A DNA stretch of 42,740 nt from an uncultured Solirubrobacteraceae bacterium (lineage in GTDB: Bacteria; Actinomycetota; Thermoleophilia; Solirubrobacterales; Solirubrobacteraceae), in the NCBI GenBank assembly GCA_902806205.1, contig CADCVR010000098.1, forward strand, positions 1 to 42,740. Reading direction: 5' to 3'. Positions 10,040-13,166 of the stretch are shown piece by piece. A program made the position numbers and the translations under genes. Numbering within the stretch: position 1 is the stretch's first letter; each line of letters begins with the position of its first letter. Under the pieces are notes generated by a model. It saw only the letters and a list, made by a program, of their open reading frames with translations, was not told the origin of the DNA and ran no database searches.

Positions 10040-10735
10040 CTAGTAGATGTACCCCGACAGGGCCCCTCGGTCGTGGACCGTGATCCGCCCGCGGCCCTGG
10101 GAGATCACACCCGCGCGCTCGAGCACCGCCAGGAAGCGGCTCGCCGACTCCCGCGAGGAGCCCGCGAGCTGCGCGATCTCGGCTTGGGTGATCGTCACGA
10201 GCACGCCCTCGCCGGCCGCGGCGCCCTCTTGCAGCGCTGCGTCGACGAGTTGCCCGAGGACGCCCGCCACGCGGCTTTGCACGGTCTGGAAGCTCTGGCG
10301 CGCGAGGCGCTCGTTGGTCTCGCGCAGTCGCCGCCCCAGGGAGATCACGAGCTTCACCGCGATGTCCGGGTGCTCTTTGAGCAGGCGCCGGAAGTCCGCA
10401 CCGAGGATCGCCAGCGTGTCGACGCGGTCGAGCGTCTCGACGGTGGCCGAGCGCGCCTCGTCGTCGAACATCGCGAGCTCTCCGAAGATGTCCCCCGGAC
10501 CGAAGTGCGCCAGGGTGATCTGGCGTCCGTCGACGTGCTCCCGGATCGCCCTGGCGTGTCCCTCCGCCACGACGTAGCACGTGTCGCTCGTGTCCCCCTC
10601 GCGGAAGATCACGTGGTGGGCAGCGAAGCGCCGGGTGACGGTGACCGCCGCCACGCGGCCGAGGTCGGGCTCGGCCAGGTTGGCGAAGACCGGCACGCGC
10701 GAGAGAAGCTCGACCGGGGCAAGTGCGGGGGCCAC
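10040..10735 (-). CDS. Crp/Fnr family transcriptional regulator
   Basis: 231 residues. The N-terminal cyclic-nucleotide-binding barrel includes the phosphate-binding cassette FGELAMFDDEARSATV with Arg95. The long dimer helix is about 112-150 and the C-terminal winged helix-turn-helix about 180-225 (TQAEIAQLAGSSRESASRFL). The conserved cassette suggests cAMP or a related nucleotide, and no cysteine cluster of the FNR type is seen. It starts with GTG at 10735. A TAGAGA hexamer lies 6 bases upstream, a near match to the leaderless -10 pattern seen elsewhere. It heads a likely operon with the Nudix and ASCH genes. Confidence 0.92.
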   Translation of the reverse strand: MAPALAPVELLSRVPVFANLAEPDLGRVAAVTVTRRFAAHHVIFREGDTSDTCYVVAEGHARAIREHVDGRQITLAHFGPGDIFGELAMFDDEARSATVETLDRVDTLAILGADFRRLLKEHPDIAVKLVISLGRRLRETNERLARQSFQTVQSRVAGVLGQLVDAALQEGAAAGEGVLVTITQAEIAQLAGSSRESASRFLAVLERAGVISQGRGRITVHDRGALSGYIY

Positions 10736-10772: not shown

Positions 10773-12053
10773 TCAGCCCCCACCCAGGGCGGCCTCCCGC
10801 CGGCGGCGCCGCAGGCCGCGGCCGGCGAGCGCCGCGCCCCAGCCGAGCAGCGCCAGCGGGAGCAACACGGCGCCGGCGACGAGCGCCACGCCGGCGAGGA
10901 CCTCCAGCACCCGGAGCGCGTCGCGCGCGGCATCGCCGGGGCCCCAGGCGCTGCCGGCGTCCGGGTCCTCGGCGGCGCCGCGCGCCCGTACCGAGACGTC
11001 GACGCGGGTGAAGTCCGCGCGGCGGCGCAGTCCGCGCAGGTCACCCTCCAGGCGCGCGATCTCCGTACGGTTGCCGCGGATGCGCGCCCGAAGGCTCGCG
11101 ATCGAGCGCGGCGTGGAGGCCTTGCCGAGCGCCGCGAGCAGGGCCTTGCGCTCCGCGCGGGCGTCCGAGAGGCGATCCTGCGCGGAGACGAACGACCCCG
11201 TGATGTCCTGCGCGCCCTCGGAGAGGCGCGCGACCCCGGCGAGCTCGGCGAAGCGCTTCAGCGCGTCGTCGACGCGGGCGGTCGGGATCCGCAGGACGAA
11301 CGTCGCGTCGCCCCCGGAGGGCGTGCTGTCCACCTGGGAGCTTGCGACGACCCCACCGAGATCCTGCGTGGCGCGCACGAGGCCGTTCGCCGCATCCTGG
11401 AGGCCCTTGGCGTCGGTGGTCAGGCCGAGCGTGGCGGTGCGTTCGACCTTGCGAGCGACGGGACCGGGCGCGCCGCCGAGCGTGGCGGTGCGTTCGACCT
11501 CGCGAGCGACGGGACCGGGCGCGCTGCCGAGCGGCGGGGAGCCTGGTGCGGCGGGCGGCACGGCGGCGGGCGCGGGCCCTCGCCCCGCGAGATCCCGCTG
11601 GGAAGCCGCTCCGGCCGTGGGAGGCGCCGGCGCAGTCTCGGCGGAGCTCGCCGCGCCACCCGACGCCCCGGAGGATGCTTCGCCGCTGCTCGGAGCGCTC
11701 ATCGCGGCGTCGCCACCGGTCTGGTCAGGAGTGCTGCCCGTCCCGTCGAGCGCGCCCGTGCCGACGACGACGCCTCCGACCAGCAGGCTGCAGGCGACGG
11801 CGAGCGCGGGAAGCATCGCTCGGGCGGGAAGCCGCAACCACGCCGGCCGAGCGCGCGGGAACCCGGCGGCGACGCGGTCGTCGAGCGCGCGGGCGAAGCC
11901 GGTTGCCGGCGCGGGCGCTTCGTCGCGGACGGCGACCACGAGCGCAGCCCATCGAGCATCGGTGGCCTCGCCCGCGAGGGCGGCCTCGAGCTCGGCCAGG
12001 TCAGCGACCGCGGCGGGATCGAGGCGGTCGGTGGGGTCGTGGTGGCGGTTCAT
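10773..12053 (-). CDS. DUF4349 membrane protein, candidate anti-sigma factor
   Basis: 426 residues. The N-terminal cytoplasmic part (about 1-90) is acidic and helical (for example AELEAALAGEATDARWAALV), followed by a membrane helix near 94-114 (LPALAVACSLLVGG). Next comes a Pro/Ser/Ala-rich linker with a 17-residue tandem repeat (GPVARKVERTATL), then a DUF4349 domain with a central coiled coil (RLSDARAERKALLAALGK through EIARLEGDLRGLRRR). A second membrane helix is near the C-terminus (VLAGVALVAGAVLLPLALLG) with a basic tail. It overlaps the ECF sigma gene by 4 bases (ATGA), which is the usual anti-sigma position. No zinc-binding H-x3-C-x2-C motif is visible, so the sigma-binding role is inference from context and topology. 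Confidence 0.8.
   Translation of the reverse strand: MNRHHDPTDRLDPAAVADLAELEAALAGEATDARWAALVVAVRDEAPAPATGFARALDDRVAAGFPRARPAWLRLPARAMLPALAVACSLLVGGVVVGTGALDGTGSTPDQTGGDAAMSAPSSGEASSGASGGAASSAETAPAPPTAGAASQRDLAGRGPAPAAVPPAAPGSPPLGSAPGPVAREVERTATLGGAPGPVARKVERTATLGLTTDAKGLQDAANGLVRATQDLGGVVASSQVDSTPSGGDATFVLRIPTARVDDALKRFAELAGVARLSEGAQDITGSFVSAQDRLSDARAERKALLAALGKASTPRSIASLRARIRGNRTEIARLEGDLRGLRRRADFTRVDVSVRARGAAEDPDAGSAWGPGDAARDALRVLEVLAGVALVAGAVLLPLALLGWGAALAGRGLRRRRREAALGGG
11425..11526. repeat. 51-bp tandem repeat inside the DUF4349 gene
   Basis: Two consecutive copies (11425-11475 and 11476-11526) differing at 2 of 51 positions, with the start of a third. The unit is 17 codons, so the frame is kept and the linker peptide is duplicated. 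The near-identity implies a recent duplication. Confidence 0.9.
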
Positions 12054-12577
12054 GCGCAGGCCTTCCGCAGTTTCGTGACGGCGCGGTGCACCTTCGTGCC
12101 CGCGTTGGATTCCGAGATTTCGAGCAGCTCGCCGATCTCGGCGTTGCTCAGCCCGGCGTGGAACTTCAGGGCGACGAGCTCGCGCTCGCGCGGGTCGAGC
12201 GCCTCGAGCGCGGCCCGGACCGTCGCGCGCCGCTCGGGCTGGAGGCCCGGGCCGGACTGGTCGGCGGGCTCGGGCTCGGCGGCGGGGTCGAAGGTCAGCG
12301 CGGCGGTCCGCTTGCGCCGCCGCAGCTCGTCCAGCGCCGCGTTGCGTGCGATGGCGAACAACCAGGCTCGGGCGGAACCCCGCTCGGGCCTGAAGCGGGT
12401 GCGCCGCCGGTAGGCGCGCTCGAAGGCGAGTGCCGTGACGTCCTCCGCGGCCGCCCGGTCGCGCAGCAGCGCCCAGGCGTAGGCGTGCACGTCGCCGGCG
12501 GCGTCGCGGTAGAGCGCATCGAACGAGAGTGCGGCCGTGTTCGGAGGGGAGAACGCCATGGTCAAGGTCTCGCTCAT
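12050..12577 (-). CDS. ECF-type RNA polymerase sigma factor
   Basis: About 175 residues. Region 2 includes FDALYRDAAGDVHAYAWALL, DVTALAFERAYRR and AWLFAIARNAALDELRRRKR; region 4 includes LDPRERELVALKFHAGLSNA and the helix-turn-helix EIGELLEISESNAGTKVHRA. It directs RNA polymerase to a stress or envelope regulon. The ATG at 12577 is chosen; further ATGs at 12610 and 12559 are possible and the ribosome site is weak. It ends in an ATGA overlap with the DUF4349 gene, its probable membrane-bound regulator. The upstream neighbour is divergent. Confidence 0.9.
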   Translation of the reverse strand: MSETLTMAFSPPNTAALSFDALYRDAAGDVHAYAWALLRDRAAAEDVTALAFERAYRRRTRFRPERGSARAWLFAIARNAALDELRRRKRTAALTFDPAAEPEPADQSGPGLQPERRATVRAALEALDPRERELVALKFHAGLSNAEIGELLEISESNAGTKVHRAVTKLRKACA

Positions 12578-12626
12578 ACCTGCACTACGCCGCTCGACGG
12601 CGCCCATCACACCGCGTGCTCGGCGC

Positions 12627-12638: not shown

Positions 12639-13166
12639 GTGCCCCGCTCGCCCGCAACCCGACGCGTCCTGGTCGCCGTCGGCCTCGCGGCCCTCCTGGC
12701 GTCCGGGGCCGGTCCCGCCGTCGCGAAGGGCGGGTCGTCGGTGAGCGCATCGCGGCTCCTCTGGGCCACGGTGAACATCTGCGACACGATCTCCCACCCG
12801 GACACGGTCGGGATCCGCGGCTCCATGCCGGGCTCGGGCGTCGCCGGCGAGCAGATGTTCATGCGCTTCCAGCTCCAGTTCTTCGACCAGAAGGACAAGG
12901 AGTGGCACAACATCGGCGCTTCGGGGGACTCGGGGTTCATTCCCGTGGGCTCCGGGCGCTTCAAGCAGCGCCAGAGCGGCCGCAACTTCACGGTCCGCCC
13001 GCCGCGCACCGGCGCGTTCATCATGCGCGGCGCGGTGACGTTCGAGTGGCGCCAGGACGGTGAAGTCGTCCGTCGCGCCCGCAAGCGCACCACCTCGAAG
13101 CGAGGCCCCACCGCTGGTGCCGACCCGTCCGGGTTCTCCGCGGCGAAGTGCGAAGTTCGCGCGTAA
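12639..13166 (+). CDS. Secreted protein, function unknown
   Basis: 175 residues from a GTG start. The first 30 residues form a Sec signal peptide (RRVLVAVGLAALLASGAGPA, cleavage probably after AVA). The mature part is beta-rich, contains DKEWHNIGASGDSGF, and has two cysteines (ATVNICD and AKCEVRA) that could bridge. The C-terminus is basic. No enzyme motif is visible. An upstream ATG (12537) lies antisense within the sigma gene and would bury the signal peptide, so it is rejected. The gene is divergent from the sigma factor and could be in its regulon, but no matching promoter was established. Confidence 0.75.
   Translation: MPRSPATRRVLVAVGLAALLASGAGPAVAKGGSSVSASRLLWATVNICDTISHPDTVGIRGSMPGSGVAGEQMFMRFQLQFFDQKDKEWHNIGASGDSGFIPVGSGRFKQRQSGRNFTVRPPRTGAFIMRGAVTFEWRQDGEVVRRARKRTTSKRGPTAGADPSGFSAAKCEVRA

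What the first reader, a model, noticed from the sequence alone, without database searches (positions are those of the whole stretch)
10773..12577. ECF sigma factor coupled to a DUF4349 membrane protein
The 4-base overlap, acidic cytoplasmic N-terminus and single central helix fit an anti-sigma factor, but the outer part is a DUF4349 coiled-coil domain and no zinc motif is present. This would be a signal-transduction role for DUF4349.
Basis: inference. Interest (0 to 1): 0.6.

Follow-up and report, generated by a model that had tools for sequence, protein, structure and literature searches.

The report
ECF sigma factor with DUF4349 anti-sigma
In soil bacteria related to Paraconexibacter, a transcription-switch protein (an ECF sigma factor) is encoded together with a two-pass membrane protein that very probably holds it inactive and senses something outside the cell through DUF4349, a widespread domain of unknown function.

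Summary
A sigma gene (12577..12050, -) overlaps by ATGA a gene for a 426-residue DUF4349 protein (12053..10773, -). That protein has two membrane helices, not one. Its layout is a cytoplasmic three-helix domain, a membrane helix, a long linker, an extracytoplasmic DUF4349 domain and a second membrane helix.

The pairing is conserved. In this order 89 of 91 DUF4349 loci have the sigma gene directly upstream; one exception is cut by a contig end, the other lacks both sigma and N-terminal domain. Across 201 genomes sigma and DUF4349 occur together or not at all (108 both, 77 neither, 8+8 mismatches, mostly cut or damaged loci). Conventional DUF4349 lipoproteins elsewhere in the phylum lack the N-terminal domain and have no sigma neighbour (57 of 57).

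New here: a promoter, [TC]GTGA[TC]G-N15-17-CGTA, lies a few bases before the sigma start codon in 106 of 110 loci (0.8 expected). It is the only exact match in the host genome, so the operon probably activates itself.

The best explanation is a zinc-free membrane anti-sigma factor with DUF4349 as sensor, resembling the RsbN/BldN system. Binding, signal and release mechanism are unshown. New variant of a known kind.

The parts
12585..12611 (-). ECF-type promoter TGTGATG-N15-CGTAG, 7 nt before the sigma start codon (leaderless or near-leaderless)
   Evidence: Motif [TC]GTGA[TC]G-N15-17-CGTA found in 106 of 110 related sigma loci, shuffled mean 0.8; only exact match in own genome
12050..12577 (-). 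ECF sigma factor, 175 aa, regions 2 and 4 only
   Evidence: Pfam PF04542 1e-16, PF08281 1e-11; NCBIfam sigma70-ECF 1.6e-28
12050..12053 (-). ATGA overlap of sigma stop and DUF4349 start (translational coupling expected)
   Evidence: overlaps of -4, -8, -11, -14 in nearly all relatives
10773..12053 (-). Putative membrane anti-sigma factor with DUF4349, 426 aa
11856..12053 (-). Residues 1-66: cytoplasmic three-helix domain (helices 13-26, 33-45, 53-63), putative anti-sigma domain, zinc-free, not in Pfam
   Evidence: Order-wide conservation, consensus eL.alDaALaG...eLa.L...LRA.RP.P.PaFaarLDaRVAaGFPr; model pLDDT about 80; no Pfam family; present only with the sigma gene
11763..11831 (-). Residues 75-97: first membrane helix
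   Evidence: hydropathy, model
11424..11525 (-). 51-nt tandem duplication (17 aa, ..GPVAR[EK]VERTATLG) at the linker/DUF4349 border
10980..11453 (-). Residues 201-358: extracytoplasmic DUF4349 domain, alpha/beta with a coiled-coil hairpin
   Evidence: PF14257 E 2.5e-32; model pLDDT 95, pTM 0.78
10839..10940 (-). Residues 372-405: second membrane helix, followed by a short Arg-rich cytoplasmic tail
   Evidence: tail conserved

Best explanation
The pair is a transmembrane signalling module. The DUF4349 protein is the cognate anti-sigma factor. In the resting cell its cytoplasmic three-helix domain (residues 1-66) holds the ECF sigma factor at the membrane, away from RNA polymerase. The DUF4349 domain outside the membrane, tethered by two membrane helices and a long flexible linker, senses an envelope condition. 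The signal frees the sigma factor, by a conformational change or by proteolysis of the anti-sigma factor. Free sigma then transcribes its own operon from the TGTGATG-N15-CGTAG promoter, raising both itself and its inhibitor, plus a very small regulon that in some relatives includes predicted secreted proteins. Shown: gene order and overlap, conserved unit, domain layout, topology prediction, promoter conservation and its near-uniqueness. Inferred: binding, inhibition, autoregulation. Unknown: the signal and the release step.
For: Sigma directly upstream of DUF4349 in 89 of 91 order loci and 19 of 19 informative loci of another lineage, chosen only by the DUF4349 Pfam model. Sigma ortholog and DUF4349 co-occur: 108 both, 77 neither, 8 and 8 mismatches, Fisher p 2e-36 (not corrected for phylogeny), mismatches mostly contig ends or damaged copies. 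The N-terminal domain occurs only with sigma (92 of 92), while 57 of 57 ordinary DUF4349 proteins sampled without it have no sigma neighbour and mostly a lipobox. One genome carries a DUF4349 gene without N-terminal domain and without sigma (L024). N-terminal domain predicted as three helices, like the zinc-free RsbN class (PMC7406223, PMC8103513); weak profile similarity to N-termini of DUF5667 proteins that follow ECF sigma genes, score 22.3 against 2.9 for the reversed control. Promoter in 106 of 110 loci, 0.8 expected; unique exact match in own genome; in 146 relatives 23 near-exact matches, none in the control, 18 of them 5-8 nt before this sigma gene's start codon.
Against: No direct interaction evidence. 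Coevolution of sigma and N-terminal domain was not detectable with 105 pairs, Neff 58. The complex could not be modelled. The RsbN resemblance is weak in sequence (hhalign probability 17%). Adjacency and co-occurrence would also be seen if the protein were an activator or a target rather than an inhibitor.
Confidence: 0.83

Rival explanations
1. The DUF4349 protein is a structural or enzymatic envelope protein that is merely a target of the sigma factor, co-transcribed with it; the N-terminal domain serves membrane insertion or oligomerisation.
For: Ordinary DUF4349 proteins are lipoproteins or secreted proteins with no sigma link, so the domain has some function of its own. The promoter drives the operon.
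Against: It does not explain why a conserved cytoplasmic helical domain appears only when the sigma gene is present, nor why sigma and DUF4349 are lost together. No other membrane anti-sigma gene lies in the unit.
Confidence: 0.09
2. The membrane protein is a positive partner: it recruits or activates the sigma factor, or presents it to polymerase at the membrane, rather than inhibiting it.
For: Same genomic evidence; nothing computed here fixes the sign of the effect.
Against: Established membrane partners of ECF sigma factors in this layout (RseA, RskA, RsbN) are mainly inhibitors (PMC7406223, PMC8103513). Positive autoregulation without an inhibitor would be hard to hold off.
Confidence: 0.05
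3. Conserved adjacency is only inherited gene order without functional coupling.
For: All loci are in one class and sigma orthologs are clearly vertically inherited to a large extent.
Against: Neighbours beyond the pair are not kept: the downstream Crp-type gene is found in only about half of the loci. Start-stop overlap and promoter are retained, and loss is joint.
Confidence: 0.03

Closest known systems
BldN-RsbN (Streptomyces), class III anti-sigma factor; DUF5667 proteins downstream of ECF sigma genes
   Same: ECF sigma gene followed by a membrane protein with a zinc-free, helical cytoplasmic N-terminal domain, a membrane helix and an extracytoplasmic domain of unknown function (PMC8103513).
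   Different: Sensor is DUF4349 between two membrane helices instead of DUF5667; N-terminal domains share only weak profile similarity. Sigma is not in the BldN family by its curated cutoff. Promoter differs from the BldN promoter as I recall it.
Class I anti-sigma factors (RseA, RskA, ChrR, RsiW; ASDI/ZAS)
   Same: Membrane-bound inhibitor encoded with the ECF sigma factor; helical cytoplasmic domain.
   Different: No zinc motif and no Pfam anti-sigma family match in any of 50 N-terminal domains. Many class I members also lack zinc, so this alone does not exclude a very divergent class I domain.
SigD-RsdA (Mycobacterium)
   Same: Zinc-free anti-sigma domain at the N-terminus of a one-pass membrane protein (from memory).
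   Different: No match to the RsdA Pfam family at E up to 1; different extracytoplasmic part.
Standalone DUF4349 lipoproteins/tail-anchored proteins (Streptomyces, other Actinomycetota; Methylobacterium example in PMC10924467)
   Same: Same DUF4349 domain and C-terminal membrane helix.
   Different: Signal peptide, often a lipobox, in place of the cytoplasmic helical domain; no sigma neighbour.

Membership tests
ECF sigma factor | Regions 2 and 4 only, sigma70-ECF superfamily match | tested here: met
DUF4349 (PF14257) | Pfam match above the gathering score | tested here: met
   112.4 bits against 27.7
Membrane anti-sigma factor (general) | Encoded with its ECF sigma factor, conserved across species | tested here: met
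Membrane anti-sigma factor (general) | Cytoplasmic helical domain before a membrane helix and an extracytoplasmic domain | tested here: met
   (prediction)
Membrane anti-sigma factor (general) | Binds and inhibits the sigma factor | not testable with these tools
Class I zinc anti-sigma (ZAS) | HxxxCxxC motif | tested here: not met
   0 of 92 N-terminal-domain proteins
Class III anti-sigma (RsbN) | Three helices, zinc-free, no class I or II similarity | tested here: inconclusive
   Three helices predicted; weak profile similarity, score 22.3 against 2.9 reversed; no direct match to Streptomyces RsbN N-termini, score 3.9 against 4.2 reversed
Class III anti-sigma (RsbN) | DUF5667 extracytoplasmic domain (feature of known members) | tested here: not met
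   DUF4349 instead; no DUF5667 in own genome

The most novel reading that the evidence does not exclude
The N-terminal domain is a separate, unnamed class of anti-sigma domain, and DUF4349 is a sensor module that was turned from a free-standing lipoprotein into the input domain of a self-amplifying sigma switch whose only genomic target may be its own operon.
Probability: 0.3. Interest if true: 0.7.

Novelty: new variant of a known kind. Interest (0 to 1): 0.57.

Why it matters
DUF4349 is common in bacteria (present in over half of the 396 phylum genomes sampled) and has no known function; only two papers in the searched open library mention it, neither with sigma factors. A dedicated sigma factor with a conserved predicted promoter gives a direct reporter for what the domain senses. 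The N-terminal domain, found in no Pfam model, would let annotators recognise these anti-sigma factors. A sigma factor whose only clear genomic target is its own operon raises the question of what it controls.

Tried and rejected
Coevolution of sigma and N-terminal domain (mutual information with 105 pairs, within-clade shuffles): no signal, underpowered. Structure comparison of DUF4349: Foldseek no match at E below 0.001; VIA rows (Z up to 10.5) cover almost only the coiled-coil hairpin, so they are not taken as relatives. PDB sequence search with the N-terminal domain: nothing meaningful. First iteration of the locus script scored mixed domains; redone with separate profiles. Genome-wide one-mismatch promoter sites in own genome: 44 matches in all against 49 in the control, so not a regulon. 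A search of genome contigs with the single protein found nothing; with a genus alignment it found six loci. Considered that L024 is simple co-loss of sigma and N-terminal domain; its genome has another sigma plus N-terminal-domain pair on a contig end (L214), so it is better read as a second DUF4349 copy or a rearrangement. Known ECF group numbers could not be assigned: the classification paper is not held.

Full report
What is there. On the minus strand an ECF sigma factor gene (ATG 12577 to stop 12050, 175 aa) overlaps by ATGA a gene for a 426-aa protein (12053..10773) with a DUF4349 domain at residues 201-407 (Pfam E 2.5e-32; sigma regions 2 and 4 at 1e-16 and 1e-11). The genome (3.38 Mb, 97% complete) has one DUF4349 and 31 sigma region 2 matches.

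Topology. Hydropathy gives two membrane helices, not one (75-93 core and 385-403 core), and 86 of 92 relatives also have two. AlphaFold with seven sequences predicts helices 13-26, 33-45 and 53-63 (pLDDT near 80), a membrane helix at 81-97, a disordered linker to 200, a confident DUF4349 domain 203-358 and a C-terminal helix from 372. Alone, the DUF4349 domain reaches pLDDT 95 and pTM 0.78: elements E-H-E-E-H-E, a long helical hairpin, then a last strand. By the positive-inside rule the N-terminal domain and the Arg-rich tail are cytoplasmic (inference).

Conserved unit. DUF4349 was sought by its Pfam model alone in 201 genomes of the order: 116 have it. Of 91 loci examined, 89 have an ECF sigma ORF directly upstream, overlapping by a few bases. 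One exception is cut by a contig end (L032). The other (L024) lacks both the sigma gene and the N-terminal domain; its genome has a sigma plus N-terminal-domain pair at the end of another contig (L214). In the rest of the class there are two kinds of DUF4349: weaker Pfam matches with sigma upstream (19 of 19 with enough flanking DNA) and strong matches of the usual lipoprotein kind (27 of 30 without sigma and without N-terminal domain; the other three have both). In the phylum sample 30 of 30 top matches are of the usual kind. These two last samples are the best-scoring matches, so they are not a random draw.

Co-occurrence. A profile of the sigma orthologs separates them cleanly from paralogs: above 125 bits, mostly above 200, against at most 124. 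In the same 201 genomes 108 have both sigma and DUF4349, 77 neither, 8 only sigma and 8 only DUF4349, Fisher p 2e-36 without phylogenetic correction. Looked at one by one, most of the mismatches end at a contig border or are damaged copies; two of the sigma-only contigs still carry the N-terminal domain.

The N-terminal domain. Consensus eL.alDaALaG....eLa.L...LRA.RP.P.PaFaarLDaRVAaGFPr. It has no zinc motif (0 of 92), no Pfam family and no PDB sequence match. Small proteins with a similar domain and a membrane helix sit next to other sigma genes in this order (L218, L219, weak matches). Compared as profiles, it is closer to the N-termini of DUF5667 proteins that follow ECF sigma genes in other Actinomycetota (score 22.3) than to the reversed control (2.9); these in turn match Streptomyces RsbN at 24.4. 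Direct comparison with Streptomyces RsbN gives nothing. RsbN is the founding member of the zinc-free class III anti-sigma factors, with three helices (PMC7406223, PMC8103513). So the likeness to RsbN is one of layout and helix number, with weak sequence support.

The promoter. Upstream regions of the 110 sigma loci were scanned without a prior motif. The most frequent spaced word pair was TGTGA-N17-CGTA in 54 loci, against at most 9 for any pair in shuffled sets. Written as [TC]GTGA[TC]G-N15-17-CGTA it is in 106 of 110 loci, 0.8 expected, never on the other strand, and it sits 2-9 nt before a start codon. In the window it is TGTGATG-GGCGCCGTCGAGCGG-CGTAG, 12611..12585, with ATG at 12577. Such a distance implies a leaderless or nearly leaderless mRNA (inference). 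In the whole host genome it is the only exact match; with one mismatch the count equals the control. A stricter form in 146 family genomes gives 23 matches and no control match. Eighteen precede this sigma gene by 5-8 nt; three precede the same predicted lipoprotein gene in three genomes of one genus, one precedes a small secreted or membrane protein, and one is unclear. This is the expected sign of an autoregulated ECF sigma factor with a very small regulon, possibly an envelope one.

Mechanism. Best reading: the DUF4349 protein is a membrane anti-sigma factor; its cytoplasmic helices hold the sigma factor, DUF4349 reads an envelope signal, and release of sigma switches on the operon. Gene order, joint loss, domain restriction and promoter are shown; binding, sign of the effect, signal and release are inferred. 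Coevolution analysis with 105 pairs was uninformative and a joint model could not be made.

Known or new. No paper in the open library links DUF4349 to sigma factors; the main ECF classification and its supplements could not be read, so the group may be listed there. It works like known membrane anti-sigma systems. The sensor domain and the N-terminal domain are not those of a described family tested here, so it is rated a new variant of a known kind.

Noticed in passing
window 11424-11525: 51-nt tandem duplication (copies 96% identical) inside the DUF4349 gene, repeating 17 residues at the start of the domain; absent from the same-genus proteins L053, L059, L061.
   Followed up: partly
window 10040-10735 (-): Crp/FNR-type regulator directly downstream of the DUF4349 gene, same strand, found there in about half of the order's loci; it may be co-transcribed.
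   Followed up: partly
window 12639-13166 (+): Divergent gene for a predicted secreted protein without a Pfam family, sharing the short intergenic region with the sigma promoter; a relative occurs in 33 of the related loci examined.
   Followed up: partly
L304, L305, L307 (about 1500-2430): Same near-exact ECF promoter 7 nt before a predicted lipoprotein of about 300 aa without Pfam family in three genomes of one genus: likely second target of the sigma factor.
   Followed up: partly
L024 and L214 (one genome): A DUF4349 gene next to the Crp-type gene without sigma and without N-terminal domain, while a sigma plus N-terminal-domain pair lies at the end of another contig.
   Followed up: partly
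L326 (2053-2776): One reading frame joins a fragment of sigma, the N-terminal domain and part of DUF4349: a deletion-fused remnant or an assembly error.
   Followed up: no
L236-L265: DUF5667 proteins in many Actinomycetota follow ECF sigma genes in the same layout as RsbN; the N-terminal domains vary widely.
   Followed up: partly
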